Source: Clostridia bacterium
GTDB lineage: Bacteria > Bacillota > Clostridia > Christensenellales > Aristaeellaceae
Length of the DNA: 40,762 nucleotides
Direction of reading: 5' to 3'
Assembly (NCBI GenBank): GCA_017550745.1
Contig: JAFZOG010000109.1
Span: 1-40,762 of the forward strand
In this document: piece after piece, positions 2,332 through 27,771 of the stretch
Layout: each line of letters begins with the position of its first letter
Numbering within the stretch: position 1 is the stretch's first letter
Translations under genes and position numbers: made by a program
Notes under the pieces: model-generated
The model's database searches: none
Seen by the model: the letters and a program-made list of their open reading frames with translations, nothing else
What the model was told of the DNA's origin: nothing

Positions 2332-2353
2332 GTTTTCGCCTCCTCTCATTTCT

Positions 2354-3162: not shown

Positions 3163-3231
3163 GTATATGCTGGTAAATCAAATCCGACGTTGATCGATAT
3201 GTACTGTTTGCCAAGAAGGGAGCGACGGCTC

Positions 3232-4695
3232 GTGCGATACGCCAATCCCATCCTGCGCGGGGATTATTCCGATCCGGATGTGATCCGTGTGGGCGAAGAT
3301 TTTTATATGATCTCCTCCTCTTTTACCTACGTGCCCGGTATTCCGGTGCTGCATTCCAGGGATCTTGTCCACTGGGAGCTGATCGGCTACGCGGCGCGGC
3401 GCCTTCCTTTTGCCCGGTACGACAAACCCGCCCACAAATGCGGCATCTGGGCCCCCAGCCTGCGGTTTCACAACGGGCTGTTTTATGTGTATGTGTGCAT
3501 GCCGGACGAGGGGTTATTTGCTTTTACCGCCAAAGACCCGGCGGGAGAATGGGAATGCCACTACGTGAAGGACGTGACCGGCTGGATCGACCCCTGCCCG
3601 CTGTTTGACGATGACGGGCGGGTATGGCTTGTCCACGGTTTCGCCGCCAGCCGGGCGGGGATCAACAATGTGCTGTATGTGCATAAAATGTCCGCCGACG
3701 GCCTGACGGTAGTGGATAAGGGCCGGATGGTATACGACGGCGCGGACCACAACGACATCACCGTGGAAGGGCCCAAGGCCTACAAGCGGGACGGCGTTTA
3801 CTGGATCCTGTGTCCGGCGGGCAGCGTGAAGCCCGGATACCAGCTGGCCCTGCGGTCAAACAGCATCTACGGCCCCTATGAACGCCGGGTGGTGCTGGGC
3901 CAGGGCAGCACGCCCATCAACGGCCCCCACCAGGGCGGCTGGGTCAGCGACGGCCGGGGAAAGGACTGGTTTATCCATTTTCAGGACATGGACGCCTACG
4001 GCAGGGTGACCCACCTGCAGCCGGTGGATTGGACAGACGGCTGGCCTGAAATCGGCAGGAAGGGTTCGCCGGTGCTGGGCGGGCAGATCGATTTGCCCCC
4101 CTTCGCCGCGGAAATCCCCACATCCGATGAGTTCGTCCATGGCCTGGGGCTGCAGTGGCAATGGCAGGCCAATCCCAGCATGAGCTGGTATTCGGAATTA
4201 AAGCCCGGACTGCGGCTGCACGCCGCGCCGGCGGAAAGCCTGTTCCACGCGGGCAACTTCCTTTCCCAGCTCATGCAGAACCACGATTTTGACATGGACA
4301 CCCAGTTCGACACCCATGCCCAGGACGGCGACATTTCGGGCCTGGGCATGATGGGCTATACATATTATTATATCGCGCTCGGCCAGGGCCGGGTGAGCCT
4401 GAAAATGGGCATGGCGGTGGAAATCAGCCGCTGGGTGCCGGAGCGGGTCACGGAAACAGCCATTGCGGAGGTCATGTGGCCAAGCGAGCGGATCATGCTG
4501 CGGATGCGGGTCAGGCGGGGCAACGTGTCCTTCTTCTATGGCGAAGGCAGCCATTCCCTGCGGCCCCTGGGCGGCGAATATCCCATGACCGGCGGCGGAT
4601 GGACCGGCGCGCGCCCCGGCCTGTTCACCCTGAACACCCTGGGCCGCTGGGGCGGCTGGGCGGATGTGCAGTACGTTAAGTTTTCTACATTATAA
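3232..4695 (+). CDS. GH43-family glycoside hydrolase (beta-xylosidase / alpha-L-arabinofuranosidase type)
   Basis: This 487-aa protein lacks a signal peptide and is probably cytoplasmic. The N-terminal five-bladed propeller of GH43 covers about 1-300. Candidate catalytic residues are Asp14 (base, in SDPDVIR), Asp120 (pKa modulator, in GWIDPCPL) and Glu179 (acid, in TVEGPKAY). The C-terminal ~190 residues look like the beta-sandwich found on many GH43 enzymes. GTG at 3232 is chosen because AAGAAGGGAG lies about 9 nt upstream; an in-frame TTG at 3190 has no ribosome site. GH43 enzymes release arabinose, xylose or galactose from oligosaccharides. In this pectin-type locus the substrate is probably an arabinan or galactan side-chain fragment, but specificity cannot be read from sequence. 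It is the first gene after the consensus promoter. Confidence 0.88.
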   Translation: MRYANPILRGDYSDPDVIRVGEDFYMISSSFTYVPGIPVLHSRDLVHWELIGYAARRLPFARYDKPAHKCGIWAPSLRFHNGLFYVYVCMPDEGLFAFTAKDPAGEWECHYVKDVTGWIDPCPLFDDDGRVWLVHGFAASRAGINNVLYVHKMSADGLTVVDKGRMVYDGADHNDITVEGPKAYKRDGVYWILCPAGSVKPGYQLALRSNSIYGPYERRVVLGQGSTPINGPHQGGWVSDGRGKDWFIHFQDMDAYGRVTHLQPVDWTDGWPEIGRKGSPVLGGQIDLPPFAAEIPTSDEFVHGLGLQWQWQANPSMSWYSELKPGLRLHAAPAESLFHAGNFLSQLMQNHDFDMDTQFDTHAQDGDISGLGMMGYTYYYIALGQGRVSLKMGMAVEISRWVPERVTETAIAEVMWPSERIMLRMRVRRGNVSFFYGEGSHSLRPLGGEYPMTGGGWTGARPGLFTLNTLGRWGGWADVQYVKFSTL

Positions 4696-4746
4696 AAAAA
4701 TTCGAAATATAAGAATGAAACAACGACCACCGAGGAGGAGCGTCCT

Positions 4747-7716
4747 GTGAAACGTCTTGCCGGGATGATGCTGATGGTTTTCTGCCTGACGGGGGTTCTT
4801 TGCGCCCAGGGAGAAACCGTCGGCGGCGAATGGGCCGATTTATACGCTTTGTCTGCGGAAACCGCCATTGAATACGGTGATTTGCGGGAGGAATGGGCGC
4901 AGAACCCTGACGTCTATGCCCCCGCGCCGCAGGACGCCCGCATCGAGCTAAAGCCTGCCGATGCGGAGCTGTCCGGCGACATCCGGTTCGTGGAGCATTT
5001 TGACGCGTATGGCCCGCTGTATCCCGCGCAGAAAGGCGCGTTTGACGCTGTGCTGTCCGCGGGGGACAATGATTCCGCCGCCGTTTGGCATATCACGGTG
5101 GAGCACGCGGGCCTGTACGAGCTGCAGGTTTCCTATCTTGCCCTGGGCGGAAACGAAGCCAAGGTGCAGCGCAAAATCACCATTGACGGGGAAATGCCCT
5201 TTGAGGAAGCCAACAACCTGTGCTTCTACCGCGTGTTTGAGGAGGAAGTGCAGGCAAACGGCAGGATGCGCGTCAATGCCATCGGCGATGAGGTATGGCC
5301 GCACATGTATGAAAAAGAAGTGTGGCAGACCGTGCGGGCGGTGGATCAGCAGGCCATTTATGTGGATCCGCTGCAATTCTACCTCTCCGAGGGCCGGCAT
5401 GAAATCTGCTTCCAGTATGTGGACCAGCCCGTGGTGCTGGGGGAAATCGCTTTCGTAAGCCCCAGGACGTATCCCGCCTATGCTGAAAAGCTGGCCCAGT
5501 GGCAGGCGGCGGGCTGCCAGCCCGTATCCTCCGGGACGGTCGTCAAGCTGCAGGCGGAAAACAGCGCCTGGCGCAGTGAAAACGTCATCCGCCGCGAATC
5601 CGACGCCGACCCCATGACCGAGCCCAAGTCCGGCGCAGAGCGGGTGCTGAATATCGTAGGCGGTTACCGCTGGCGTCTTGGCAACGCGGCGGTGAGCTGG
5701 GACATCGACGTGCCCGAATCCGGCCTGTACGCCATTCACTTTAAGGTGCTCCAGAGCACCGACCCGGGAATGCCCTCCTACCGGCAGATCATGATCGACG
5801 GTGAAATCCCCTTTGAGGAAATGAAGCTCTATTCCTTCCCCTATGACAGCCATTGGTACGGCGACACCCTGCGGGACGCGGACGGCGTGCCGTACCAGTT
5901 TTACCTTGAAAAGGGAAAGCACACCCTCACCGCCACGGTGAAGCTGGGGCCCATCGGCGACATCATGCGCCGCACGGAAAAGGATACCGCCTATTTGAGC
6001 CGGATGCAGCGGGAGATCGTGAAAATCACCGGCACGGAGCCGGATTACAATTATGAATACGACCTGTACCGCACCATGCCGGAGCTGAGCGGCCAGCTTA
6101 TTTACCTGGCGGAGAGGCTTTCGGAAAGCGCTGACCTGCTGGCCTCTATTTCCAGCGAAACCACCTCCATGGAAAACAACTACCGGCAGATCATCGACCA
6201 GCTTCATTTCTTCGCCGAAGACGTGGACCGCATTCCCAAGGCCCTCAGCGACCTGGACAACGCCCAAAGCAACCTGGGCACCTATATCGCTTCCATTGAA
6301 AAATGCCCCATGGCCATGGATTACCTGGCGCTGACCGCGCCGGACGCGGCGTTTGAAATCACCACCTCCAATTTCCTTCAGCGCATGGCCGTGACAGGGG
6401 AAAACTTCATCGCTTCTTTTTCCAAGGATTATGACAGCGTGGGCCTGATCGTGGACGATATGCCCGAAAACAAGGAGACCACCCTGCTCAACGTGTGGAT
6501 CGCCCGCGGCACCGAGTGGGGCGAAATCCTCAAGGAGCTGGCCGACGAAGATTTCACGCCCAAGACCGGCATCGTCATCAATCTGCACGTGCTGCCCGCG
6601 GGGCAGCTGTCCACCGGGTCCGTCAACACCATCATGCTGGCTGTGGCCAGCGGCACCGCCCCGGACGTGGCGCTCAGTGTGCAGTACAATCTGCCCAACG
6701 AATTCGCCTTCCGCGGCGCAGTGGCGGATCTGACCCAGTTCCCGGATTTTGAGGAAGTGGCCTCGGGCTTTTATGAAAGCAGCCTGATCCCCTTCCGCTA
6801 CAACGGCGGGGTGTACGCGCTGCCGGAAACCATGGACTTTACCTGCCTGATTTATCGGCAGGACGTGCTGGCGGAGCTGGGGCTGGAGCTGCCGGAAACC
6901 TGGACGGACCTGTACCAGAAAGTGCTGCCCAGGCTGTATGAAAACAACATGAGCTTCTCCCTGCCGGTGGATACCTCCGTATCCAGCAATTCTCCCGGCG
7001 CGCTGCGCGGGTTCACGATGCTGCTGCTGCAAATGGGCGGCGATTATTACAAAGGCGGCGGGGCCGCGTCCGGGCTGGATACGCCGGAAGCCTACAAAGC
7101 CTTTAAAGCCTGGACGGACATGTACGCCAACTATGAAATCGACGCGGAAAGCAATTTCTTCACCCGCATCCGTACCGGCACCATGCCCATCGGCATCGGG
7201 AATTATACCACCTACATGCAGTTGATGACCTCCGCGCCGGAGCTGTACGGCCGCTGGAGCATCGCCCCTGTGCCCGGCACGCTGCAGCCCGACGGTACCG
7301 TCAGGCATACCGTGGGCACCACGGCGTCCACCGCCAACATCATCCTGAGCCAGAGCGAAAAGCAGGAGGCGGCCTGGGAATTCATGAAGTGGTGGTGCAG
7401 CGAGGAAGTGCAGACCCGCTACGGCCGTGAGCTGGAAGCCATCCTGGGCATGGGCGCCCGGTGGAATACCGCCAATGTGAACGCCTTTTATTCCCTGCCC
7501 TGGGACGCCCGGCACGAACGGGTCATCCGGGCGCAGATGGAAGCCGCGGAAGAACAGCTGATCGTTCCCGGCGGCTACTTTACGGGCCGCCACATCATCA
7601 ATGCCTGGAACCGGGTGGTCATCAACAACGAAAACGCCCGGGACGCCCTGGAAAAAGCGGTCAAGGACATCAACAAGGAGCTGCATAACAAACGGCTGGA
7701 GTTTGGGCTGGAATAA
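4747..7716 (+). CDS. Giant extracellular solute-binding protein with duplicated N-terminal modules
   Basis: A 989-aa exported protein, about twice the normal size of a sugar-binding protein. A signal peptide (1-20) has no good lipobox. Two related beta-rich modules follow, at about 60-240 and 265-430, each carrying an ITIDGE(M/I)PFEE-type strand about 203 residues apart and a (Q)FYL-x-x-G-(R/K)H segment. These resemble carbohydrate-binding jelly rolls. A helical, coiled-coil-prone linker (about 430-560) leads to a family-1 extracellular solute-binding domain (about 575-985, with ASGTAPDVAL and EAAWEFMKWW). The GTG start follows GAGGAGGAG. Two permease genes lie immediately downstream, so it probably delivers an oligosaccharide to them. 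Module-1 and -2 function as a substrate trap is inference. Confidence 0.85.
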   Translation: MKRLAGMMLMVFCLTGVLCAQGETVGGEWADLYALSAETAIEYGDLREEWAQNPDVYAPAPQDARIELKPADAELSGDIRFVEHFDAYGPLYPAQKGAFDAVLSAGDNDSAAVWHITVEHAGLYELQVSYLALGGNEAKVQRKITIDGEMPFEEANNLCFYRVFEEEVQANGRMRVNAIGDEVWPHMYEKEVWQTVRAVDQQAIYVDPLQFYLSEGRHEICFQYVDQPVVLGEIAFVSPRTYPAYAEKLAQWQAAGCQPVSSGTVVKLQAENSAWRSENVIRRESDADPMTEPKSGAERVLNIVGGYRWRLGNAAVSWDIDVPESGLYAIHFKVLQSTDPGMPSYRQIMIDGEIPFEEMKLYSFPYDSHWYGDTLRDADGVPYQFYLEKGKHTLTATVKLGPIGDIMRRTEKDTAYLSRMQREIVKITGTEPDYNYEYDLYRTMPELSGQLIYLAERLSESADLLASISSETTSMENNYRQIIDQLHFFAEDVDRIPKALSDLDNAQSNLGTYIASIEKCPMAMDYLALTAPDAAFEITTSNFLQRMAVTGENFIASFSKDYDSVGLIVDDMPENKETTLLNVWIARGTEWGEILKELADEDFTPKTGIVINLHVLPAGQLSTGSVNTIMLAVASGTAPDVALSVQYNLPNEFAFRGAVADLTQFPDFEEVASGFYESSLIPFRYNGGVYALPETMDFTCLIYRQDVLAELGLELPETWTDLYQKVLPRLYENNMSFSLPVDTSVSSNSPGALRGFTMLLLQMGGDYYKGGGAASGLDTPEAYKAFKAWTDMYANYEIDAESNFFTRIRTGTMPIGIGNYTTYMQLMTSAPELYGRWSIAPVPGTLQPDGTVRHTVGTTASTANIILSQSEKQEAAWEFMKWWCSEEVQTRYGRELEAILGMGARWNTANVNAFYSLPWDARHERVIRAQMEAAEEQLIVPGGYFTGRHIINAWNRVVINNENARDALEKAVKDINKELHNKRLEFGLE

Positions 7717-7738
7717 AGAAAACCAAGGAGTGATTGCC

Positions 7739-8647
7739 GTGCAGGCAGTGAATAAGAGCGGCTTCAAAGAATGGATGCGCAAAAACGGCACCGGGTATGC
7801 CTTTTTGCTGCCCTTTCTGATCCTGTTCGCGGTGTTTGTGATCGTGCCGGTGGCGGTAGCCATGTACTACAGCCTGACCAATTACAACATGATCCAGCCC
7901 GCCCGGTTCGTGGGCATCAGCAATTATTCCCAGCTGATCCTGGATGACGACGTGTTTTTGATCTCTCTCAAAAACACCATGCTGTTTGCCGTGATCACCG
8001 GCCCCATCGGCTATTTCGCCTCCTTCCTGATGGCGTGGCTGATCACGCTGGTGAAGCGGGGCAGGGGCTTCTTTTCCCTCATGTTTTACGCCCCCAGCCT
8101 GACCAGCGGCGTGGCCATGGCGACCATCTGGCTGATCCTCTTTTCCGGCGACCGGTACGGGTACATCAACAACCTGCTGCTCCGCGCCGGGCTGATCCTG
8201 GAGCCGATCCTGTGGACCAAGGACGCCACCTATGTGCTGCCGGTCGTCATGATCATCTCCGTCTGGATGAGCATGGGCACCGGTTTCCTGGTGTTCCTGG
8301 CGGGCCTGCAGAATGTGGATCCCGCCATGTACGAGGCCGCCCGGGTGGACGGCATTAAGAACAAGTTCCAGGAGCTGCGGTTCATCACTTTGCCCATGAT
8401 GAAGCCGCAGATGCTCTTCGGCGCCATTAACGCCATCGTCGGCGCTTTCGGCGTATTCGACGTTGCCACCGCCGTGGCCGGTATGCCCAGCCCTAACTAC
8501 GCCGCCCACACCATCGTGGCCCACCTGTACGACTACGCTTTCACCCGCTTCAATATGGGCTATGCCAGCGCGGTGGCCATGGCGCTGTTCGTGATCACCT
8601 TTACCCTGGGGCGGATCTGCATGCATGTGTTTAAGGACAATACATAA
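7739..8647 (+). CDS. Carbohydrate ABC transporter permease (UgpA type), pair 1
   Basis: A 302-aa inner-membrane permease with six predicted helices; the first is at about 19-44. The EAA loop reads YEAARVDGIKNKFQELRFI, the site that docks on the ATPase. GTG at 7739 is taken as start because AAGGAG lies 8 nt upstream; codons further upstream overlap the solute-binding protein gene and lack a ribosome site. It forms a heterodimer with the next permease, energised by an ATPase not encoded here. The 22-bp gap after the giant binding protein suggests one importer. Confidence 0.9.
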   Translation: MQAVNKSGFKEWMRKNGTGYAFLLPFLILFAVFVIVPVAVAMYYSLTNYNMIQPARFVGISNYSQLILDDDVFLISLKNTMLFAVITGPIGYFASFLMAWLITLVKRGRGFFSLMFYAPSLTSGVAMATIWLILFSGDRYGYINNLLLRAGLILEPILWTKDATYVLPVVMIISVWMSMGTGFLVFLAGLQNVDPAMYEAARVDGIKNKFQELRFITLPMMKPQMLFGAINAIVGAFGVFDVATAVAGMPSPNYAAHTIVAHLYDYAFTRFNMGYASAVAMALFVITFTLGRICMHVFKDNT

Positions 8648-8715
8648 CGATCTCGAAACAATGCGGGACCTCCTGCTTTTCCACTCCTCACTGACCGCAA
8701 GGGAGGCTGACAATC

Positions 8716-9606
8716 GTGACTGCCAAAGCCGTTTATAAGCCGCGCAGGTTCAAGCTCCACCTGCACAGGCTGACCTTTTCACGCTTCATGCTGTATCTTT
8801 TGCTCACCGTGCTGGTGGTGATCGCGGGCCTGCCGCTGTTCGCCATGGTCTGCCGCAGCCTCATGCCGCTGGATGAGCTGTACATTTATCCGCCCCGGCT
8901 GATCGTGTATAAGCCCACCCTGCGGAATTTCAGCGACCTGCTGACCTCCCTTTCCTCCTCCACCGTTCCCTTTACCCGGTATATTTTCAATTCCCTCTTC
9001 ACCACCGTGGTCACCGTGCTGGCCAGCGTGATGGTGTGCTGCATGGGCGCTTACGGCCTGGTAAAGCACAGGCCCGCGGGCAGCGGGGTGATCTTCGCGG
9101 TGGTCGTGGCGGCGCTGAGCTTTTCCACCCATGTGACGCAGATCCCCAATTATCTGGTGGTCAACAAGCTGGGCCTGGTGAACACATATTGGGCGCTGAT
9201 CATTCCCAAAATTGCCATCGCGTACAATTTCTTCCTGGTCAAGCAGTTCTGCGAGCAGCTGCCCGATTCCATCCTGGAGGCCGCCCGCATCGACGGGGCG
9301 AAGGAGTTCCGCGTGTTCTGGACCATCGCAATGCCGCTGCTCAAGCCCGCCTGGACAACGCTGGCGGTGTTCTCCTTCGTGAACAACTGGAACGACTATT
9401 TTTCTCCCCTGATCTTCATTTCCAGCAACGCGCTGAAAACCCTTCCCCTGGCGCTGCAGACCCTGTCCGGCGGCGCGGGTGTGGTGGCCAGGGCAGGCAC
9501 CGTTGGCGCGGCGACCTTCCTGACCACGGTGCCCTCCATCCTGGTTTTCGCCATCATGCGCGGCAAGGTCATGGAAACCATGTCCTTCTCGGGCATCAAG
9601 TCGTAA
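8716..9606 (+). CDS. Carbohydrate ABC transporter permease (UgpE type), pair 1
   Basis: A 296-aa permease with six predicted membrane helices; the first is at about 21-43. The EAA loop is LEAARIDGAKEFRVFWTIA, with a following WNDYFSPLIF segment typical of the MalG/UgpE family. GTG at 8716 follows GGGAGG at a 9-nt spacing. Partner of the preceding UgpA-type permease in the inner membrane. The 68-bp gap between the two genes contains nothing evident. The ATPase is missing from the locus, as is common where one MsmX-like ATPase serves many importers. Confidence 0.9.
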   Translation: MTAKAVYKPRRFKLHLHRLTFSRFMLYLLLTVLVVIAGLPLFAMVCRSLMPLDELYIYPPRLIVYKPTLRNFSDLLTSLSSSTVPFTRYIFNSLFTTVVTVLASVMVCCMGAYGLVKHRPAGSGVIFAVVVAALSFSTHVTQIPNYLVVNKLGLVNTYWALIIPKIAIAYNFFLVKQFCEQLPDSILEAARIDGAKEFRVFWTIAMPLLKPAWTTLAVFSFVNNWNDYFSPLIFISSNALKTLPLALQTLSGGAGVVARAGTVGAATFLTTVPSILVFAIMRGKVMETMSFSGIKS

Positions 9607-9619
9607 GGAGGGAACGGCA

Positions 9620-11074
9620 ATGAAGAAACGAATGCTCTTCCTTTCGCTGGCGCTCCTTCTGCTGTGGACGCCATGCGCCCGGGCCGTGGTGGGGATGGAC
9701 GCCTTCGTGGTGGATCCGGACAGCGCGGATACGGATAACAGCTTCGTGCCTGTGCCCGCCGCTTACGAAGTGTACGACACCATCAAGAACCTGGGCGAAG
9801 CCGGGTTCATGAACCACCCGGAGGATATTTTCGCGGCCCCGGACGATACCCTGTATATCGCGGACGGGGAAAACAACCGGGTGCTGCAGATGACCCGGGA
9901 CGGCAAAGTCCTCCGGGAAATCACCGAGGGCGGCGGCATGAAGCTGAAAAAGCCCCGGGGGGTATATGTGCATACCGACGGCAGCATCTGGATCGCCGAT
10001 ACGGGGAATCTGCGCATCGTGACCCTGAACGCGGACCTAAGCGACCGCAAGGTATATGTCAAGCCGGAATCCAGCCTGCTGGGGGCCAATTTCACCTTCG
10101 ACGTGCAGAAGATCTTCGTGGCGAACACGGGCTATATCTACGCCCTCAAAGGCGCGAACCTGATCGCCCTGGACGAAAGCAACAATTTCCGCGGCTACCT
10201 GGGGGCTGACAAGGTGGGCTTTTCCCTGTCCCGTTTCCTGATCCGCCTGTTCGGCAGCAAGAGCCAGATCGAGCGCACCGTCAAGCAGGAGCCCGCCAGC
10301 TACTCCAATTTCTTTATTGGCGCGGACAATATGATTTACGGCATTCTGTCCAACAAGAACACCGCCCAGATCAGAAAACTGAATTCCGTGGGCACCAATA
10401 CCTATCCGGAGGAAACCTACGGCTTTACCCTGCCGGACCGCACGGCAGGCGCCGCCTCCAAAGTGCTGGAGCCCACCTTCGCCGATATCACCGTGGAGGA
10501 GAACGGCATCATCACCGTGGTGGACCGCGGCACGGGCCTCATTTACCAGTATGACCAGGACGGGAACCTGCTGTGCTGCTTCGGCGGCCTGGGGGATACC
10601 GGCGGCCTGTTCCAAATCCCCATCAGCATCGACGCGGACAGCGAAGGCTACCTGTATGTGCTGGACTACCAGAACAACGAGATCACCGTGTTCAAGCCCA
10701 CCCACTTCATCCAGCTGGTCCATCGGGCGGTCATGCTGCACAGCGAGGGGCGCTACGACGAAGCGCTGGTGTACTGGCGGCAGGCGCTGGAAATCGACAG
10801 CAACTATGCGCTGGCCCACCGGGGGGTGGCGAAGATCCTGGGGAAGCAGGAGGATTGGTCTGGCGCCCTTCGCTCCTACGAGCTGGCCGGCGATAAGGAG
10901 GGCTACTCCGAAGCCTTCGCCGAATACAGGCACGAATACTTCCGCCAGCATTTCCTGCTTGTGACGGTGCTGGCTGCGGCCGCCGCGTTCATTGCGGTCA
11001 AGCTGCTGGCCCTGGCCAAGAAGAAAGCGGATCAGTGGGCGGACGACGTACAGATGGGGAGGGGATTGAAATGA
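9620..11074 (+). CDS. Membrane-anchored NHL-propeller protein with TPR segment
   Basis: A 484-aa exported protein. It has a signal peptide (1-22, cleavage after ARA) and NHL/beta-propeller strands over about 55-360, with repeats of the form hPxDIFAAPDDTLYIADGENNRV, PRGVYVHTDGSIWIADTGNLRI and PISIDADSEGYLYVLDYQNNEI. A tetratricopeptide segment (about 363-425) and a C-terminal transmembrane helix (about 445-467) with a short basic cytoplasmic tail follow. The propeller and TPR should therefore face outward. Its stop overlaps the next gene's ATG by 4 bp, implying coupled synthesis with the Yip1-like protein. No catalytic motif was recognised. A scaffold or sensor role for the surrounding importers is inference. 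Confidence 0.75.
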   Translation: MKKRMLFLSLALLLLWTPCARAVVGMDAFVVDPDSADTDNSFVPVPAAYEVYDTIKNLGEAGFMNHPEDIFAAPDDTLYIADGENNRVLQMTRDGKVLREITEGGGMKLKKPRGVYVHTDGSIWIADTGNLRIVTLNADLSDRKVYVKPESSLLGANFTFDVQKIFVANTGYIYALKGANLIALDESNNFRGYLGADKVGFSLSRFLIRLFGSKSQIERTVKQEPASYSNFFIGADNMIYGILSNKNTAQIRKLNSVGTNTYPEETYGFTLPDRTAGAASKVLEPTFADITVEENGIITVVDRGTGLIYQYDQDGNLLCCFGGLGDTGGLFQIPISIDADSEGYLYVLDYQNNEITVFKPTHFIQLVHRAVMLHSEGRYDEALVYWRQALEIDSNYALAHRGVAKILGKQEDWSGALRSYELAGDKEGYSEAFAEYRHEYFRQHFLLVTVLAAAAAFIAVKLLALAKKKADQWADDVQMGRGLK

Positions 11075-11703
11075 CGGGCTTCAAGCTCTGCGTCATGATG
11101 CTGTTCCACCCCATTGTGGTGGGTGAATACATCAAAAAACGCCGCGGGGACGATTCCTTTCAGAAAACGGGCCTGATCCTGGTTGCGGCGCTGCTGGCCC
11201 TGGCCCTGGGCGTAAGCATCTTTTCCATCTACTTCACCCATTATCCCCTGGCAGCCGTTTCCGTGCGCAAGGCCAACCTGGTGCTGGAGATCGGCAAGCT
11301 GTTCGTGCCGGTGCTGACGTGGATCCTGGCTTCCTATGCCATGACCACCATCCTGGACGGGGCCACCAGGATAGGCGAAGCCATGCTGTACAACACGCTG
11401 GCGCTAATGCCTTACGTAGCGTTCACGGTGCCGGCGGTGCTCCTCTCCCGCCTGATGGACGGGGGCCAGGCCGGGCTGTACGGCATTCTCACCGGCGGGC
11501 TGCTGATGTGGGTCATCCTGCTGATGATCGTGGGCCTCAAGGAAATGAACGAGTACAGCATCCCGAAAACCCTGCTGGTGGTATTGCTCACCGTCTTCAC
11601 CATGGCCGTGATCTGGGCCACCATCGTGCTGCTGTTCACCATCTCTTCCCAGTTTGTCACCATGATCCGGGAAGTGTATTTTGAAATCGTTTACCGCATA
11701 TAG
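11071..11703 (+). CDS. Yip1-family integral membrane protein
   Basis: A 210-aa polytopic membrane protein with about five predicted helices (roughly 33-55, 75-95, 108-127, 137-155, 168-192) after a short amphipathic N-terminus containing MLFHPIVVGEYIKKRRGDDSF. This arrangement matches the bacterial YIP1 family, whose function is unknown. ATG at 11071 is preferred because GGGGAGGGG lies just upstream and it forms an ATGA overlap with the propeller gene; an ATG 36 bp further upstream lies inside that gene. Placement between an outward-facing propeller protein and a secreted DUF5696 protein suggests the three work together, possibly as an accessory of the sugar importers. Confidence 0.7.
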   Translation: MTGFKLCVMMLFHPIVVGEYIKKRRGDDSFQKTGLILVAALLALALGVSIFSIYFTHYPLAAVSVRKANLVLEIGKLFVPVLTWILASYAMTTILDGATRIGEAMLYNTLALMPYVAFTVPAVLLSRLMDGGQAGLYGILTGGLLMWVILLMIVGLKEMNEYSIPKTLLVVLLTVFTMAVIWATIVLLFTISSQFVTMIREVYFEIVYRI

Positions 11704-11719
11704 GGAAGGAGGGCGCGGC

Positions 11720-13849
11720 ATGAAAAAAACGGTTTTTGTGTTTCTCCTTTGCGCGGCGCTGCTGGCTTTCCCGGCCCTGGCGGAGGAAGCGGTGGAAGAA
11801 AGGATCCCGATTGCCGAAAACGGGCGGCTGAGCCTGTACCTTGCTTCCAATTGCTGCTCCATTGATATCGAGGATCATCTGACGGGCAAAACCTGGTCCT
11901 CCACCATGAACGATGAAACGGCGGAGGGATTGAAGATCATTCCCGCCCAGCAGAAGCGGATCACCTCCCTGCTGGCCGTCAACTGCACCAACCTGGACAC
12001 CGGCCTGGGCGTGGTAAACAACATCGCGCTGATGGCGGAAAAGGATCTAAAGGCGTCCTATGAGCTGATCGGCAACGGCGTGCGGCTCACCTATTACCTG
12101 GGCACTTACCAGGTGGGGGTCCAGGTGGAAATCCTCCTGGACGGAAACAGCCTGGTGGCACGCGTGCCCTACAGCGGCATCCGGGAGGACGGCGGGTTTT
12201 CCCTGGTCAGCGTCGACATGATGCCCTTTCTGTTTTCCGCCACGGACAAGGCGGAAGGCTTCTTCTTCTATCCCGACGGCTGCGGCGCCATCATGGAGTT
12301 TCAGGATTACGCCCATTACCGGGAATCCACCCGGCTGTACTCCGTGTACGGCGATTTCCTCAGGCAGCCTGCCCTGCTGGACATGTTCGGCCAGGAGGCC
12401 CCGGACGTGCTGATGCCCGTGTTTGCCATGAACCGGGGCGGCCACGGCATGATGGCCATCATCGAACAGGGGGCGGAAAGCGCCAGGATCTCCCTGAACA
12501 GCTCCAACAACATCATTGGCATCAACTACCTCTTCGCCAACTTCCAGTATCGCCGTTCCTTCGACGATCGGCGCGTCACCAGCCGGGACATCAAGGTGTT
12601 TGATAAAAACGACATCCCCACGGATTATCAGATGCGCATCCTGTTCCTGGAGGAGGAAGACCCGGATTACAGCCTGATGGCCTGCGCCTGGCGGGATTAC
12701 CTGCTGCAGAACGGCCTGGTGGAAAAGACACAGCGCGCGCCCACCGTGGCCATCGACCTGTTCATGAACGCCCCGGAGGAGGGCCTGCTCTTTGATATTC
12801 CCCGCACCGTCACCACCCTGTCCCAGGCGGAGGAAATTCTCCGATCCCTGGACAGCCTGGGGGTGAAAAACATCCGGGCCTCCATCAAGGGCTGGACGGC
12901 GGACGGTTACGGCAAGACCCCGGACCGTTTCCCCATCAGCGGCTCCATCGGCAATGAGAGCGATTTCAGGCGCCTCCTGGAAACGGCCCACAGCCTGGGC
13001 GCCACCGTGTCCCTGACCTGCAATTTTCTGGAGGCCGCCTCCGATCAACGGGGTTACTCCCACCGGAACGACGTGGTGTATACCGGCAACCATACCATCC
13101 TGACCGATCCGGAAGAAACGGTGTTCATGCTCAGCCCCGAAGTGGCCCAACAGAAGATGGACGCCTTCATGGAGAAAGCGAAGGCATTCAGCCTGGACGG
13201 CATCCGCTTCGAGCGGATGGGCAAATTTGTTGCTTTCAATTACGGCAGCCGCCGGTATCTGACCGCAGCGGATACGCTGAACATCTATCATGCCATGGCG
13301 GACAGCGCGCATGCCGCTTTCGGATCAGCCGAAGCGGAGGGCGGGGATACCAGCCTGCTGGGACACGTGGATTTCTTCACAGACGTGCCCTATGAGGATT
13401 TTGGCTACCAGGTGACCACCGCCGCCGTGCCCTTCTACCAGATCGCCCTGCACGGCCTGGTGGATTACACCGGGCGCCCCGGCAACCTGAGCAGCGACCT
13501 GGAGCGGGAAGTGCTGCGCTGGGCGGAGATGGGATATACCCCCTTCTTCGAGCTGACCTACGATAACACGGAAGAGCTGATGTATACCAATTACCAAAGC
13601 CTGTTCTCGGCGGAATACACCGCCTGGCAGGAACGGGTTGCCCGGGCGGCGAAGCAGTTCACCGACGGGCCCCTGGCGTCTCTTCACGATCAACTGATCG
13701 TAAAGCATGAGCGGCTCAGCGATACCTTGGTCAAAGTGACCTACGAAAACGGCGCGGCGGTCTGCGTGAATTACGACCAGGAACCTGCCTTGGCGGACGG
13801 CGCGGAAATCCCCGGCCGGAGCTGGGCCGTCGTTCAGCCCGGTCAGTGA
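11720..13849 (+). CDS. DUF5696-type secreted protein, glycosidase-like fold suspected
   Basis: A 709-aa exported protein with a signal peptide (1-21, cleavage after PALA) and no lipobox. An N-terminal beta-sandwich-like part (about 30-330) precedes a segment of alternating strands and helices (about 355-600) that reads like a TIM barrel: DSLGVKNIRASIKGWTADG, LGATVSLTCNFLEAA and SLDGIRFERMG. A small beta-rich C-terminal domain follows. The general layout resembles DUF5696 proteins found beside sugar ABC transporters in Firmicutes. Acidic residues in the barrel could be catalytic but none can be assigned. ATG at 11720 follows GGAAGGAGGG. It is the one gene product here that could act as an extracellular glycosidase; this is inference. 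Confidence 0.65.
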   Translation: MKKTVFVFLLCAALLAFPALAEEAVEERIPIAENGRLSLYLASNCCSIDIEDHLTGKTWSSTMNDETAEGLKIIPAQQKRITSLLAVNCTNLDTGLGVVNNIALMAEKDLKASYELIGNGVRLTYYLGTYQVGVQVEILLDGNSLVARVPYSGIREDGGFSLVSVDMMPFLFSATDKAEGFFFYPDGCGAIMEFQDYAHYRESTRLYSVYGDFLRQPALLDMFGQEAPDVLMPVFAMNRGGHGMMAIIEQGAESARISLNSSNNIIGINYLFANFQYRRSFDDRRVTSRDIKVFDKNDIPTDYQMRILFLEEEDPDYSLMACAWRDYLLQNGLVEKTQRAPTVAIDLFMNAPEEGLLFDIPRTVTTLSQAEEILRSLDSLGVKNIRASIKGWTADGYGKTPDRFPISGSIGNESDFRRLLETAHSLGATVSLTCNFLEAASDQRGYSHRNDVVYTGNHTILTDPEETVFMLSPEVAQQKMDAFMEKAKAFSLDGIRFERMGKFVAFNYGSRRYLTAADTLNIYHAMADSAHAAFGSAEAEGGDTSLLGHVDFFTDVPYEDFGYQVTTAAVPFYQIALHGLVDYTGRPGNLSSDLEREVLRWAEMGYTPFFELTYDNTEELMYTNYQSLFSAEYTAWQERVARAAKQFTDGPLASLHDQLIVKHERLSDTLVKVTYENGAAVCVNYDQEPALADGAEIPGRSWAVVQPGQ

Positions 13850-13866
13850 AGAAGGAGGTGTGTCCC

Positions 13867-14760
13867 GTGACGGCAAAAAACGCTGCCCCGGCCCGGAAGC
13901 GGCTGGGCATTGACAGGAGACGGTCGCTGGAAGCCTATATTTTCCTGATTCCCTGGATCATCGGCGTCTGCCTGTTCTTCGCCTACCCGATTTTCGTGTC
14001 CGTCAGGCTGGCCTTTTCGGACATCGTTGAGTTCAAGGGCCTGAAAACCACCTGGGTGGGGCTGGAGAATTTTCAGTATATCTTCTTCTTTGACATCAAC
14101 TTTGTGCCCACCTTTCTGCAGGTGGTGTACGACACCCTGCTGAACACCCCGCTGTGCATGGTGTTTTCGCTGGTCATCGCGATTTTGATCAACCGCAAAA
14201 TGGTGGGGCGGGGCTTCTTCCGCACGGCGTTTTTCATTCCCGTGCTGCTGGGCACCGGCTACATCATGAAACAGCTGCTGGGCATGGGCGTGGACGGCAT
14301 GACCGTGACCACCGGCATCACCGTGCCCAAGCTCATCGCCGATCTGCTGGGCGTGAACATCACGGAGGTGGTGCAGGGCTTCCTGGACCGGATCACCGTG
14401 GTGCTGTGGAAAAGCGGCGTGCAGATCGTGCTGTTCCTGGCGGGCCTGCAGGGCATATCAGGCTCGCTGTACGAAGCGGCGAAGGTGGACGGGGCCACGG
14501 AGTGGGAAATGTTCTGGAAGATCACACTGCCCATGATTTCCCCCGTGATCATGATGAACATTGTCTATACCGTCGTCGCTTTCTTCGTCGATACCACCAA
14601 CCCCATGGTGGACTACATTTACAAAATGAACTTTACCAATCAGCAGTTTGAGTATGCCGCGGCCATGAGCTGGGTCTATTTCATCTTCGCCTTGGCGCTG
14701 TGCCTGGCCTGCATCCTGCTGATGCGCCGCCACATCTATGATTCCGGCGCCAAAAACTGA
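13867..14760 (+). CDS. Carbohydrate ABC transporter permease (UgpA/LplB type), pair 2
   Basis: A 297-aa permease with six predicted membrane helices and an EAA loop YEAAKVDGATEWEMFWKIT. The N-terminus has the basic stretch and first helix (YIFLIPWIIGVCLFFAYPIF) typical of LplB-like permeases. GTG at 13867 follows AAGGAGGTG, which overlaps the stop codon of the DUF5696 gene, so an earlier in-frame GTG at 13846 is rejected. It pairs with the next permease and probably with the binding protein at 15804. Confidence 0.9.
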   Translation: MTAKNAAPARKRLGIDRRRSLEAYIFLIPWIIGVCLFFAYPIFVSVRLAFSDIVEFKGLKTTWVGLENFQYIFFFDINFVPTFLQVVYDTLLNTPLCMVFSLVIAILINRKMVGRGFFRTAFFIPVLLGTGYIMKQLLGMGVDGMTVTTGITVPKLIADLLGVNITEVVQGFLDRITVVLWKSGVQIVLFLAGLQGISGSLYEAAKVDGATEWEMFWKITLPMISPVIMMNIVYTVVAFFVDTTNPMVDYIYKMNFTNQQFEYAAAMSWVYFIFALALCLACILLMRRHIYDSGAKN

Positions 14761-14779
14761 CCGGGAGGAGGGATCAGCC

Positions 14780-15724
14780 ATGACGACGGCCGCTATCAAA
14801 AGCAGAGCAAGGAAAAGCAGGGTGTCCCGCTTCTTCAAAACCTTTACGGTCAGGTTTGCGTTCTATTTTCTGCTCTGTGCCCTGAGCTTCATTTTCCTTT
14901 ACCCTTTTATCACCATGATCGTCAAATCCCTCATGACGGATGACGACCTGGTGAACATCACGGTCAAATGGCTGCCCAGCGAGCTGACGTGGAGCAACTA
15001 TGAGATCGCCTTCCGCCGCATGGGGTTCAGCCGCTATGTGTGGAACAACGTGCTGGTATGCGCGGTGGGAACCGTCGGGCATATGTTTTCCTGCGCCTTG
15101 ACGGGATACGCCTTCGCGCGGTATAATTTCAAATTGAAGAATGTATTGTTCGTGGTGGTCATCCTGATGATGATCGTGCCTGTGCAGGTGATCATCTTTC
15201 CGCTCTACAAGCAGTATTCGGACTGGAGATGGCTGAATACCTACCTGCCCCTGCTGGTGCCCACGTTCTTTGGCTTTGGCCTGAACGGCGGCTTCTTCAT
15301 CTTCCTTTACCGGCAGTTCTTCATGGGCCTGCCCTACGAGATGGAAGAAGCGGCCCGGGTGGACGGCTGCGGCCCGGTCCGCACCTATGCGCGCATCATG
15401 CTGCCCATGGCGCAGGCCCCGATGCTGGTGTGCGGCGTGCTCAGCCTGGTATGGCACTGGAACGATTATTTTGAGCCCAGCATTTACATCACCACCAATC
15501 CGAATATGCGCATGCTGCCCAGCGTGCTCCCCTCCCTGTATGCCTTGCTCAACCAGGAAAACCACACCATGATCCAGGTGAATGAGCTGGAGGGCATCAT
15601 TTTCAACGAAGCCATGCTGATGGCCGCCACCTTCCTGTGCATTATCCCCATCCTGATCGCTTACCTGTTCCTGCAGCGCCGGTTCATGGAAGGCGTGGAG
15701 CGCAGCGGCCTGACGGGAATGTAA
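14780..15724 (+). CDS. Carbohydrate ABC transporter permease (UgpE/YtcP type), pair 2
   Basis: A 314-aa permease, six predicted helices, EAA loop EEAARVDGCGPVRTYARIM followed by WHWNDYFEPSIYI. ATG at 14780 follows GGGAGGAGGG at 8 nt; the reading frame is open upstream but lacks a ribosome site. It forms the second permease pair with the preceding gene. A 79-bp gap with a stem-loop (15750-15776) separates it from the second solute-binding protein gene, an arrangement that could allow higher expression of the binding protein. Confidence 0.9.
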   Translation: MTTAAIKSRARKSRVSRFFKTFTVRFAFYFLLCALSFIFLYPFITMIVKSLMTDDDLVNITVKWLPSELTWSNYEIAFRRMGFSRYVWNNVLVCAVGTVGHMFSCALTGYAFARYNFKLKNVLFVVVILMMIVPVQVIIFPLYKQYSDWRWLNTYLPLLVPTFFGFGLNGGFFIFLYRQFFMGLPYEMEEAARVDGCGPVRTYARIMLPMAQAPMLVCGVLSLVWHWNDYFEPSIYITTNPNMRMLPSVLPSLYALLNQENHTMIQVNELEGIIFNEAMLMAATFLCIIPILIAYLFLQRRFMEGVERSGLTGM

Positions 15725-15749
15725 GTATCGTTCCAGGCTCTTTTCATCG

Positions 15750-15776
15750 TTCCAAAGCGGCTTAAAGCCGCTGGAA
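15750..15776 (+). other. Intercistronic stem-loop before the second solute-binding protein
   Basis: TTCCA and GCGGCT (15750-15762) pair with AGCCGC and TGGAA (15766-15776), giving an 11-bp hairpin interrupted by two unpaired adenines. No T-run follows, so it is not an intrinsic terminator. A role as an mRNA-stabilising 5' structure for the highly expressed binding protein gene is inference. Confidence 0.6.
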
Positions 15777-15803
15777 ATAATACAATTCAAGGAGGTCTAC
15801 CCA

Positions 15804-17444
15804 ATGAAGAAACTCGTTGCTCTCATGTTGGCTCTGGCCATGCTGCTCACCATGTGCGGCGCGGCGCTGGCGGCGGACAAGGTATCCTACTGCCTGCTGC
15901 CCTTCTCCAACGCCGTGTACGAGCCCTACATCTATCAGGGCCTGGTTGGCATGCTGAAGGTGCAGGAACTGGCGGATGTGGAAATCGAATGGCAGCCCAT
16001 CCTGGGTTCCCGGGATGAGCAGCCCGCCCTGTACCTGGCGATGCTGGCCAGCGGCAATTACCCGGACGTAATCCAGGCCCAGCACAATAACATGTACGCG
16101 GGCGGCGTCAGCCAGCTGTACGCCGACGGCATCATCATCGAGCTCAACGATGTGATCGACAAGTATATGCCCAACTATAAGGCCATGCTGGAAGCGCATC
16201 CCGAGGTCGCCAAGACCCTCAAGGACGATGAAGGCCGTTACCTGTATTTCACCGTCATCAACCCCGGCTCCACCCCCGATGAAAAGGTCGCCTTCACCTG
16301 GTACGGCCTGCAGGGCCGCAAGGACTGGATGGAGAACGTCGGCATCGAGGAAATGCCCACCACCATCGACGGCTGGTATGAGATGCTGGTTGCCTTCCGC
16401 GACCTGGACCCCAACGGCAACGGCGAACAGGATGAGATCCCCTTCGACGGCGGCGCTTCCGGCTACACATATTTCATGCCCGCCTATGACATCCTCAACG
16501 GCGCTTACGTCAACCCCGAAACCGGCAAAGTCGGCATCGGCGAATATACCCAGAACTATAAGGAATTCCTCGAAACCATGAACAAGTGGTATTCCGAGGG
16601 CCTGGTGAAGGACATCTGGAAGGAAGACGGCACCACTGCCGGCGACGAAGAGAAGGACGCCAACATCTTCGCCGACCTGGCCGGCTCCTGGAAGGGCCTG
16701 AGCAACTATTGGGAGCAGCGTCTGCCCCAGGTTCAGGAAAAGAACCCCAACGCTGATTTCATCTCCTTCCCCTGGATCGTTGACGCCAACGGCGTGGCCT
16801 ACGGAACCGACTACAACTTCTCCTACGGCGACCGGTTCACCACCGTCATCACCGTGGACTGCAAGAATGTGGAAGCTGCCGCCCGCCTGATCGACACCAT
16901 GTTCACCGAAGAAGGCACTGCCCTGACCACCTGGGGCGTCATCGACGGCGACTCCATCCTCACCGGCCGGGAAGACACTGCCTGGACCAAGGGCAACGGC
17001 ACCTACACCGTGGATGAAAACGGCGTGAAGCACGAAACCGAATGGGCCAACCAGATGACCGAAGACTTCTACGACGGCACCGGCGCCTTCGCCAACAAGT
17101 ACCGCTACGCCATGAGCCACGTGTCCTTCCCCCGCTGGGGCGCCGGCGATTACCTGGCCGCCACCCGCGAGCCCAACTATGTCGCTTCCGCCAAGCTGTG
17201 GGGCGAAGCCAGCAATGCCCTGGAATATCCCGCTGCCATCGTGCTGAGCGTGGACGCCCAGAAGGCCGCCGCGCCCCAGCTGGATGAAATTAACACCTAC
17301 ATCAACGACATGACCAAGAAGTTCATCACCGGTGAAGAACCTCTGACCAACTTCGACAATTACATGGACCAGCTGCAGAAGATGGGCATCGAAGACCTCA
17401 TCGCCGCCTATCAGGCCGCGTATGACAGCTTCATGGCCCGCTGA
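15804..17444 (+). CDS. Extracellular solute-binding protein (LipO/YtcQ type), pair 2
   Basis: A 546-aa exported oligosaccharide-binding protein of normal length for the LipO/YtcQ group. The signal peptide ends in AALA-AD; a cysteine at residue 18 sits in TMCG, which does not fit a lipobox. Family features are SGNYPDVIQ (about 75-85), the calcium-binding-like FRDLDPNGNGEQDEIPF motif and a C-terminal helix with EDLIAAYQAAYDSF. AAGGAGGT lies 8 nt before the ATG. Codon usage is extremely uniform, suggesting high expression. It most likely serves the permease pair just upstream. Ligand specificity cannot be read, but the downstream enzymes point to rhamnogalacturonan or pectin oligosaccharides. 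Confidence 0.9.
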   Translation: MKKLVALMLALAMLLTMCGAALAADKVSYCLLPFSNAVYEPYIYQGLVGMLKVQELADVEIEWQPILGSRDEQPALYLAMLASGNYPDVIQAQHNNMYAGGVSQLYADGIIIELNDVIDKYMPNYKAMLEAHPEVAKTLKDDEGRYLYFTVINPGSTPDEKVAFTWYGLQGRKDWMENVGIEEMPTTIDGWYEMLVAFRDLDPNGNGEQDEIPFDGGASGYTYFMPAYDILNGAYVNPETGKVGIGEYTQNYKEFLETMNKWYSEGLVKDIWKEDGTTAGDEEKDANIFADLAGSWKGLSNYWEQRLPQVQEKNPNADFISFPWIVDANGVAYGTDYNFSYGDRFTTVITVDCKNVEAAARLIDTMFTEEGTALTTWGVIDGDSILTGREDTAWTKGNGTYTVDENGVKHETEWANQMTEDFYDGTGAFANKYRYAMSHVSFPRWGAGDYLAATREPNYVASAKLWGEASNALEYPAAIVLSVDAQKAAAPQLDEINTYINDMTKKFITGEEPLTNFDNYMDQLQKMGIEDLIAAYQAAYDSFMAR

Positions 17445-17691: not shown

Positions 17692-18564
17692 ATGAATCCG
17701 TTCGATGATTTCATCAGCAGGAAATTTTCAGACGATGAGAATGTTTTCTGGCTGCACGGAGAAAAAATGGACATTGGCGGCGGAAGACTGACGTTTGAAG
17801 AAATCGACCGGTTAGCGGGGTATCCACAATTGGATACGGTAAGAATATCAGGGGTGAATCAGAAGACCTTTGAATACTTTATTGCAAGGTATGGAAAGCA
17901 ATTCAAACGGATTCATTTCTTTAAATGCAAACTCGTGCAGGATTGGGCCTGCCTCTCCGATCTGCCAAACCTGGAATGTCTTTCCTGGTTTTGGAATCAG
18001 CGGATCGATTCTTTATGGGATATGTCGAACAATGTATCGTTGACGGCATTGCATATTTCAAATTTTACCAGGCTGCACAGTCTCTCCGGTATTGAAAAAG
18101 CGAAGAACCTGCGTCTGTTTTCGGTGGGGGATGCCATTTGGGAAAGCATGATAATCCAATCTTTGATGCCGTTGGCCGGGATGCCGCTTGAATGCCTGGC
18201 ATGGCAGGGCAAGCATATTATGGATCAGGACTTATCATTTATACCAGCGTTGAAGCGGCTGCAGTGGTTTTTCTGTGCTATCAATCAGTTCTCGACGGAG
18301 CAATGCGCTTGGGTATCCGCGAATTGCCCTCATGCGGATGGAAGGATTTTTCATCCCTATGAAAGCTGGGAGAACGGCATGAAAGCCGCCATCATCGGCA
18401 AAAGGAAGCCTGTTCTGAATGTGCAGGGAAACGAGGAAAGAATACAAAAATATGTGGACAAATATCAAACGCTAAAAAAGCAATATGCGGGGATTCCATA
18501 CAGAGAGGCGTTTCCTGATTTATTTGCGCAAACAGATATGAAAATCAAGGAGGATAGAGTATGA
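17692..18564 (+). CDS. Leucine-rich-repeat-like cytoplasmic protein of unknown function
   Basis: A 290-aa protein without signal peptide or membrane segment. Residues about 45-215 show irregular leucine-rich repeats at roughly 20-25 residue spacing (LDTVRISGV, FKRIHFFKC, LECLSWFW, LTALHISNF, LRLFSVGD, LECLAWQG, LKRLQWFF). The C-terminal 70 residues are charged and helical. GAAGGAGAAA precedes the ATG. The base composition is visibly more AT-rich than its neighbours and the codon choice differs, so it may be an insertion into the sugar locus. Its stop codon overlaps the start of the next esterase gene (ATGA), so it is nevertheless co-translated with it. No role in sugar use can be inferred. 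Confidence 0.7.
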   Translation: MNPFDDFISRKFSDDENVFWLHGEKMDIGGGRLTFEEIDRLAGYPQLDTVRISGVNQKTFEYFIARYGKQFKRIHFFKCKLVQDWACLSDLPNLECLSWFWNQRIDSLWDMSNNVSLTALHISNFTRLHSLSGIEKAKNLRLFSVGDAIWESMIIQSLMPLAGMPLECLAWQGKHIMDQDLSFIPALKRLQWFFCAINQFSTEQCAWVSANCPHADGRIFHPYESWENGMKAAIIGKRKPVLNVQGNEERIQKYVDKYQTLKKQYAGIPYREAFPDLFAQTDMKIKEDRV

Positions 18565-19205: not shown

Positions 19206-19220
19206 GAGGGGGAGAAACGC

Positions 19221-27674: not shown

Positions 27675-27771
27675 TGTTTAGGGAAGGACTCGAACCTCCA
27701 CGGGTGAACGGGAACCCCGAACACCCACAGGATTATCAATCCTGCGCGTCTACCACTTCCGCCACCCTCCA
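27675..27771 (-). tRNA. tRNA-like gene: leucine-type body, GAU anticodon, defective acceptor stem
   Basis: The minus strand gives T-G at positions 8-9, a leucine-type D arm (GGCGGAAGTGGTAGACGC), an anticodon arm CAGGA-TTGATAA-TCCTG, a very long variable arm (GGGTG...CGGG-GTT-CCCG...CACCC) and a T arm GGAGG-TTCGAGT-CCTTC. The anticodon is GAT (27737-27735), which would read isoleucine codons although the body is leucine-like. The 5' acceptor (TGGAGGG) barely pairs with the 3' acceptor (CCTAAAC): three pairs at most. No CCA is encoded. It has its own promoter and terminator. It could be a tRNA pseudogene, a recombinant tRNA or a tRNA-shaped RNA with another task; I would not count it as a normal decoding tRNA. 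Confidence 0.6.

What the first reader, a model, noticed from the sequence alone, without database searches (positions are those of the whole stretch)
3232..17444. Unstudied membrane module (NHL/TPR - Yip1 - DUF5696) embedded between two sugar-importer permease pairs
Three genes of unknown role sit between two complete permease pairs, with a giant binding protein at one end and a normal one at the other. They encode an outward-facing propeller with a C-terminal membrane anchor, a five-helix Yip1-like protein and a secreted barrel-like protein. ATGA overlap or very short gaps link them. The set reads as one machine: a surface assembly that captures or trims polysaccharide and feeds two importers. 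Module membership is seen in the sequence; the joint function is inference.
Basis: partly seen in the sequence, partly recalled or inferred. Interest (0 to 1): 0.72.

Follow-up and report, generated by a model that had tools for sequence, protein, structure and literature searches.

The report
Conserved dual sugar-importer operon with unstudied trio
Three unstudied genes sit together between two sugar-importer gene pairs in plant-fibre-degrading bacteria and almost always stay together, so they are probably dedicated extra parts of an importer that takes up pieces of plant cell-wall polysaccharide.

Summary
The window carries giant SBP – PermA1 – PermA2 – NHL/TPR/TM – Yip1-like – DUF5696 – PermB1 – PermB2 – SBP beside pectin enzymes. 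NHL and Yip1 are one fused protein in 39 of 167 loci. The trio is tied mainly to the second permease pair: genomes with many copies hold fewer giant SBPs than DUF5696 genes.

One instance is in print, uncharacterised: the Caldicellulosiruptor bescii xylan locus, written 'xloEFG-X-GH129-axoFGE' and induced on xylan. 'X' is our NHL–Yip1 fusion, 'GH129' our DUF5696.

DUF5696 is a distant full-length homologue of the GH129-like enzyme DagB, but only 3 of 166 unique members have acidic residues at both barrel catalytic positions. I read it as a binding/guiding subunit rather than a glycosidase. Physical assembly is inferred; structure prediction was never accepted. Verdict: a real, widespread, practically unstudied accessory module of CUT1 importers; new variant of a known kind.

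The parts
3190..4695 (+). GH43 glycosidase with GH43_C2 domain (start 3190 TTG or 3232 GTG); accessory enzyme of this copy, differs between copies
4747..7716 (+). Giant solute-binding protein (989 aa): long N-terminal part with CBM-like sandwich region, helical linker, SBP domain at residues 589-889; hydrophobic N-terminus, no clear lipobox; homologue of C. bescii xloE
7739..8647 (+). PermA1, CUT1 permease with EAA loop (start inferred from the Shine-Dalgarno-like site)
8716..9606 (+). PermA2, CUT1 permease with EAA loop
9620..11074 (+). NHL-repeat propeller + TPR + single C-terminal TM anchor (residues 445-463); core of the trio
11071..11703 (+). Yip1-like protein with five hydrophobic segments; ATGA overlap with the NHL gene; fused to NHL in other genomes
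   Evidence: fusion
11720..13849 (+). DUF5696: GH129/DagB-like sandwich + TIM-barrel protein, Lys at the DagB Asp486 column and Glu at the Glu517 column
13867..14760 (+). PermB1, CUT1 permease with EAA loop; the pair most tightly tied to the trio; homologue of C. bescii axoF
14738..15724 (+). PermB2, CUT1 permease with EAA loop (start 14738 or 14780); homologue of C. bescii axoG
15804..17444 (+). Second, normal-sized solute-binding protein; the gene after PermB2 is an SBP in at least 41 of 67 loci scanned
17692..22045 (+). Substrate genes of this copy: LRR-like 17692-18564, GDSL esterase 18561-19205, pectinesterase+GDSL 19221-20918, GH88 family 20912-22045

Best explanation
The NHL/TPR protein, the Yip1-like protein and DUF5696 are dedicated accessory subunits of a CUT1 sugar importer (permeases PermB1/PermB2 and the SBP after them), usually built together with a second CUT1 importer (giant SBP, PermA1/PermA2) in one operon. 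SHOWN: inseparable genes, conserved order, NHL-Yip1 fusion into one protein, intact ATPase-coupling loops in the permeases, no MalK-type ATPase on the window contig but six elsewhere in the genome, plant-polysaccharide enzymes around it, and (from print) induction on xylan of the C. bescii operon of the same gene order. INFERRED: the NHL anchor plus the five Yip1 helices form a membrane unit with an outward propeller and TPR; this unit holds DUF5696 at the cell surface beside the permeases; DUF5696 has in most members lost glycosidase chemistry and binds and orients chains or long oligosaccharides; the giant SBP with its CBM-like region collects chains; a shared MsmX/MsmK-type ATPase drives import, after which cytoplasmic enzymes (here GH43, GH88, esterases) finish degradation.
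For: Co-location: YIP-NHL 91 of 91, YIP-DUF5696 87 of 91, DUF5696-YIP 87 of 95 in 30 of the 37 DUF5696-positive genomes; of 12 exceptions 11 are at contig ends, one is a C-terminal DUF5696 fragment. Genome level: the 37 of 398 genomes with DUF5696 are the same 37 that have a Yip1-like match of 130 bits or more; 11 other genomes have matches of 50 bits or less. Order: DUF5696 loci with NHL/YIP/PermB1/PermB2: relatives 47/47/47/46 of 47; named 78/78/76/74 of 80; phylum sample 39/39/39/38 of 40. Fusion of NHL and Yip1 in one ORF: 16 of 47, 0 of 80, 23 of 40. EAA loop: PermA1 138 of 138, PermA2 128 of 129, PermB1 142 of 158, PermB2 151 of 155 unique proteins. Distance matrices of the seven core families correlate 0.84-0.96, against 0.80-0.91 with the downstream SBP. 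DUF5696: full-length match to DagB 5opq, E 1e-17; acidic at Asp486 column 13, at Glu517 column 30, at both 3 of 166 unique proteins. C. bescii: operon string and xylan induction; XDL listed with a XynR operator and 14 target genes. MalK-type ATPases.
Against: No physical contact was tested. Correlated distances and shared operons also arise from common inheritance; no outside family was used as a control. 64 of 166 DUF5696 proteins have an acidic residue within one column of the Asp486 column, 3 (L122, L123, L125) keep acidic residues at both columns, DagB's Asp202 aligns to Asp in 31 of 34 in a second alignment, and three other acidic positions are well kept (window D225 91%, E262 81%, E616 95%), so an enzyme with shifted residues is not excluded. 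PermB1 lacks a recognisable EAA loop in 16 of 158. Genomes with many copies hold units without a giant SBP. The Yip1 assignment of the window protein is below Pfam's cut-off.
Confidence: 0.55

Rival explanations
1. DUF5696 is a working exo-glycosidase (a GH129-like family) that trims oligosaccharides at the cell surface before import; NHL-Yip1 merely anchors it.
For: Full-length homology to the proven 3,6-anhydro-D-galactosidase DagB; Rodionov 2021 labels the C. bescii gene GH129; three well-kept acidic positions and Asp at the DagB Asp202 position in 31 of 34; three Paenibacillus-like members with both barrel acids; window keeps Glu at the Glu517 column.
Against: Asp486, the one catalytic residue shared by DagB and NagBb, is D or E in only 13 of 166; no D or E is invariant among 18 diverse members; many conserved columns are Gly, Pro and Asn.
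Confidence: 0.25
2. NHL-Yip1-DUF5696 is a surface sensor that reports polysaccharide and regulates the transporters or their genes.
For: Propeller, TPR and membrane helices could make a receptor; gene copies travel with substrate-specific enzymes.
Against: No kinase, output or DNA-binding domain was found in the trio; in C. bescii the locus is assigned to separate regulators XynR and AraR; the trio is tied to a permease pair rather than to a regulator.
Confidence: 0.1
3. The trio assists biogenesis or stability of the permeases and the large secreted proteins (a dedicated assembly factor) and takes no part in substrate handling.
For: Yip1-domain proteins act in membrane traffic in eukaryotes (recalled); TPR domains commonly bind proteins (recalled); the trio is tied to PermB.
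Against: A DagB-like sandwich + barrel fold points to carbohydrate rather than to chaperoning; a separate copy accompanies each transporter unit.
Confidence: 0.1

Closest known systems
[quoted passage not shown] passages seen)
   Same: Same order: giant SBP, two permeases, NHL-Yip1 (fused, 716 aa, the unnamed 'X'), DUF5696 ('GH129'), two permeases, SBP, then hydrolases.
   Different: There the enzymes are GH43, GH10, GH39 and an esterase for xylan; in the window GH43, GDSL, pectinesterase and GH88 for pectin. NHL and Yip1 are separate genes in the window. In the passages seen, X is not characterised.
CUT1 oligosaccharide ABC importers with a shared ATPase, e.g. the Xua arabinoxylo-oligosaccharide importer of Ruminiclostridium cellulolyticum (PMC9675976; passages seen)
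   Same: SBP + two permeases with EAA loops, ATPase encoded elsewhere, cytoplasmic hydrolases
   Different: Xua has one SBP and one permease pair and no NHL, Yip1 or DUF5696 gene is described in the passages seen
GH129 and GH129-like enzymes: NagBb (5wzn) and DagB/ZGAL_3152 (5opq)
   Same: Full-length profile match of DUF5696 to DagB, partial to NagBb
   Different: Asp486 (= NagBb Asp435) and Glu517 are mostly replaced
Yip1 family (PF04893)
   Same: Five hydrophobic segments; Pfam match 77.6 bits in the fused C. bescii homologue
   Different: Window protein scores below the cut-off; bacterial importer context

Membership tests
CUT1-type ABC importer | Solute-binding protein plus two different permeases | tested here: met
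   Two permease pairs and a giant SBP in Pfam; the second SBP of the window lies below Pfam cut-offs and is named by its place and by homologues
CUT1-type ABC importer | EAA loop for ATPase coupling in the permeases | tested here: met
   138/138, 128/129, 142/158, 151/155 unique proteins; all four window permeases by eye
CUT1-type ABC importer | MalK/MsmX-type ATPase available | tested here: met
   Six OB_MalK matches in the genome, none on the window contig; coupling itself not tested
GH129 / DagB-like glycosidases | Homologous fold over the full length | tested here: met
   Profile of 18 DUF5696 vs 5opq, E 1e-17, profile 6-728 on chain 7-674; sequence only
GH129 / DagB-like glycosidases | Catalytic Asp (DagB Asp486 = NagBb Asp435) | tested here: not met
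   Lys in the window; D or E in 13 of 166, D in 5 of 34 in a second alignment; alignment at about 20% identity, no structure
GH129 / DagB-like glycosidases | DagB Glu517 | tested here: inconclusive
   Glu in the window; D or E in 30 of 166 overall
GH129 / DagB-like glycosidases | DagB Asp202 supplied by the second monomer | tested here: inconclusive
   D in 31 of 34 in one alignment, gap in 186 of 197 in the other
Yip1 domain family | Match over the curated cut-off | tested here: inconclusive
   Window 23.5 bits against 28.6; C. bescii homologue 77.6
C. bescii XDL-type operon | Gene order E-F-G-X-GH129-F-G-E | tested here: met
   X is two genes in the window
C. bescii XDL-type operon | Induction on the cognate polysaccharide | not testable with these tools
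   Published for xylan in C. bescii only

The most novel reading that the evidence does not exclude
A surface machine that makes a CUT1 importer accept long, branched plant polysaccharide chains: a propeller/TPR/Yip1 membrane scaffold docks a GH129-derived pseudoenzyme that threads or presents the chain to PermB, while a membrane-anchored giant SBP with CBM-like domains feeds a second importer. It would be a single-membrane counterpart, in working principle only, of the Bacteroidota SusCD uptake systems.
Probability: 0.3. Interest if true: 0.85.

Novelty: new variant of a known kind. Interest (0 to 1): 0.62.

Why it matters
Dedicated extra membrane and surface subunits of CUT1 sugar importers are not something I know of (recalled), yet this set is found in about one in ten of the sampled genomes of the phylum (37 of 398), in up to 20 DUF5696 hits per genome, and in Treponema, next to xylan and pectin enzymes. 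DUF5696 appears in none of the 5.39 million papers searched. If the reading is right, a component of fibre uptake in rumen and gut bacteria and in the biofuel organism C. bescii has been overlooked, and the C. bescii xylan locus makes it testable at once; it would also correct a 'GH129' label.

Tried and rejected
Structure prediction of DUF5696 (alignment A10) was asked for many times; each answer was 'machine busy', so no model, no fold search and no complex model exist. The search for related loci with the 18-row alignment failed for lack of conserved stretches; a 7-row alignment worked, so the named loci are biased to the long DUF5696 clade, capped at the best 80 of 572. A Spirochaetota prevalence count failed ('of' needs a genome handle) and was not pursued.

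Rejected: chance neighbourhood; 'three families mostly apart'; 'both importers obligatory'. Weak DUF5696 matches: 13 of 60 fetched regions (L077-L089) were partial matches without NHL or Yip1 hits and were left out of the tallies. Not all strong hits were fetched with their surroundings. In one search, 6 Yip1 rows under 40 bits and 10 NHL rows under 75 bits were left out. The 'fusion' totals (78, 47, 39) are an artefact, because the NHL model includes fused Yip1; only the NHL+YIP labels (16, 0, 23) count. A length-based count gave 16, 1 and 22; its other counts, and those, contain duplicate loci and are replaced. The regular expression for the EAA loop was too strict for PermA1 and was widened.

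Literature: nine searches in an open-licence library; subscription papers are not held and supplements were not readable, so 'uncharacterised' means in what I could see. Paenibacillus O199 proteome: 'GH129' and CBM35 proteins only on cellulose (PMC4867992, passage); not shown to be this module.
Full report
Observation. The window holds, on one strand, GH43, a giant SBP, PermA1, PermA2, an NHL/TPR protein with a C-terminal anchor, a Yip1-like protein, DUF5696, PermB1, PermB2 and a normal-sized SBP, followed by an LRR-like gene, a GDSL esterase, a pectinesterase-GDSL protein and a GH88-family hydrolase. NHL and Yip1 overlap by ATGA; the next two gaps are 16-17 bases. Over 181 loci gaps of 30 bases or less are usual: NHL-YIP 112 of 114, YIP-DUF5696 103 of 124, DUF5696-PermB1 140 of 159.

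Co-occurrence. The genome has two DUF5696 genes, each in such a module. Of 60 relatives 36 have DUF5696 over the cut-off. Of 60 regions fetched around one search hits, 47 have a full-length DUF5696; all 47 have NHL and Yip1, 47 PermB1, 46 PermB2, 46 the giant SBP, 46 PermA1, 44 PermA2. The other 13 were partial matches and show no NHL or Yip1. In a phylum sample 37 of 398 genomes have DUF5696 (at most 3 candidates per genome scored), and the same 37 have Yip1-like matches of 130 bits or more; 11 further genomes have only 50 bits or less (at most 7 candidates scored). For 30 of the 37 genomes all candidates were scored: Yip1 beside NHL 91 of 91, Yip1 beside DUF5696 87 of 91, DUF5696 beside Yip1 87 of 95. 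Of the 12 exceptions 11 are cut by contig ends and one is a C-terminal DUF5696 fragment on an 8.8-kb contig.

Named genomes. A scan of genome contigs kept the best 80 of 572 relatives: mostly Lachnospiraceae (Butyrivibrio, Lachnotalea glycerini, Acetatifactor), Clostridium sp. 12(A), a Christensenella MAG, and 14 records titled Treponema or Spirochaetia. Of the 80, 78 have NHL and Yip1, 76 PermB1, 74 PermB2, 65 the giant SBP; some are cut by contig ends, not checked one by one.

Which genes are the core. In 40 phylum loci NHL, Yip1 and PermB1 are in 39 each and PermB2 in 38, but the giant SBP is in 29. In G121, G194, G224, G099 and G141 DUF5696 hits number 10, 10, 8, 11, 20 and giant SBPs 4, 4, 4, 6, 10; in G160, G401, G238 and G394 they are equal (3, 4, 1, 3). 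So the trio belongs first to PermB. The gene after PermB2 is an SBP_bac_1 protein in 41 of 67 loci scanned (67 of 88 candidates), an undercount since the window's own is missed. Other neighbours: GH43 in 14, GH10 in 4, GH26 in 3 and GH5 in 3 of 86 proteins. NHL and Yip1 are one ORF in 16 of 47, 0 of 80 and 23 of 40 loci, so the cytosolic tail of the NHL anchor leads into Yip1: a six-helix unit with the propeller outside (inference). Distance matrices of the seven core families correlate at 0.84-0.96, without an outside control.

Proteins. DUF5696 matches DagB (5opq) over its full length, E 1e-17, and NagBb (5wzn) in part. For DagB, Asp202, Asp486, Glu517 and Glu531 were shown by mutation to matter and Asp486 equals NagBb Asp435 (PMC5698469, passages). 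In 166 unique DUF5696 proteins the Asp486 column is acidic in 13, the Glu517 column in 30, both in 3, all Paenibacillus-like (L122, L123, L125); 64 have an acidic residue within one column of Asp486. The window has Lys and Glu. A second alignment puts Asp at the Asp202 position in 31 of 34. Acidic positions kept within the family are window D225, E262 and E616. I conclude that most members probably do not hydrolyse by the DagB/GH129 mechanism, but this rests on alignment at about 20% identity. The giant SBP matches sugar SBPs (5ysb, E 9e-30) and, at profile positions 308-406, chain 432-520 of a cycloisomaltooligosaccharide glucanotransferase (5x7g, E 8.5e-09), a region I recall as CBM35. Only 15 of 131 giant SBPs have a lipobox-like motif, and 126 of 133 have a hydrophobic N-terminus (with duplicates), which suggests a membrane anchor rather than a lipid. 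The Yip1-like family has no solved relative by sequence (best E 0.41). Permeases keep the EAA loop; six MalK-type ATPase matches lie elsewhere in the genome.

Print. DUF5696 occurs in no paper of the library. Rodionov 2021 (PMC8579813, passages) lists the C. bescii xylan locus as xloEFG-X-GH129-axoFGE-xynF-xynE-xynD-xyn10A-xynX-xynB, predicted under XynR and AraR, proximal genes among those up about 10- to 100-fold and distal ones 4- to 9-fold on xylan against cellobiose. A 2025 paper (PMC12285236, passages) lists a XynR operator for this locus with 14 target genes. In genome G238 (one 2,919,718-base contig, taken for C. bescii) I find that order: giant SBP 954 aa, permeases, fused NHL-Yip1 716 aa (Yip1 77.6 bits, NHL), DUF5696 733 aa, permeases, SBP, then GH43, GH10, GH39, GH10, esterase, GH39. 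So one instance is known as an operon, with X unnamed and DUF5696 filed as GH129; in the passages seen neither is characterised.

Mechanism and verdict. Shown: an inseparable accessory trio of a CUT1 importer, repeated with different substrate enzymes. Inferred: a membrane scaffold with a mostly non-hydrolytic glycan-binding barrel that helps deliver long oligosaccharides. Structure prediction could not be run (queue full at every call). I rate it a new variant of a known kind.

Noticed in passing
L042:7634-12349 (-) and L043:7476-12281 (+): DUF5696 genes of 1572 and 1602 aa in two same-genus genomes, with about 500 extra residues before and 450 after or within the Pfam match and no other Pfam domain
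   Followed up: partly
L053, L054, L070, L071: PermA2 lies after PermB2 instead of beside PermA1, so pair members can be separated in the operon
   Followed up: no
L122, L123, L125: Paenibacillus-like DUF5696 proteins that keep acidic residues at both DagB catalytic columns and may be active enzymes
   Followed up: no
window 19221-20918: Pectinesterase domain fused to a GDSL-like domain in one 565-aa protein, next to a separate GDSL esterase
   Followed up: no
window 28117-31065: 982-aa protein with many PG_binding_1 repeats and SH3 domains
   Followed up: no
window 27681-27766 (-): Rfam tRNA match of 33.4 bits (gathering 29), not found by ARAGORN
   Followed up: no
window 380-2349 (-): SIMPL (DUF541) gene beside a zf-HC2/DUF4349 gene on the opposite strand
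   Followed up: no
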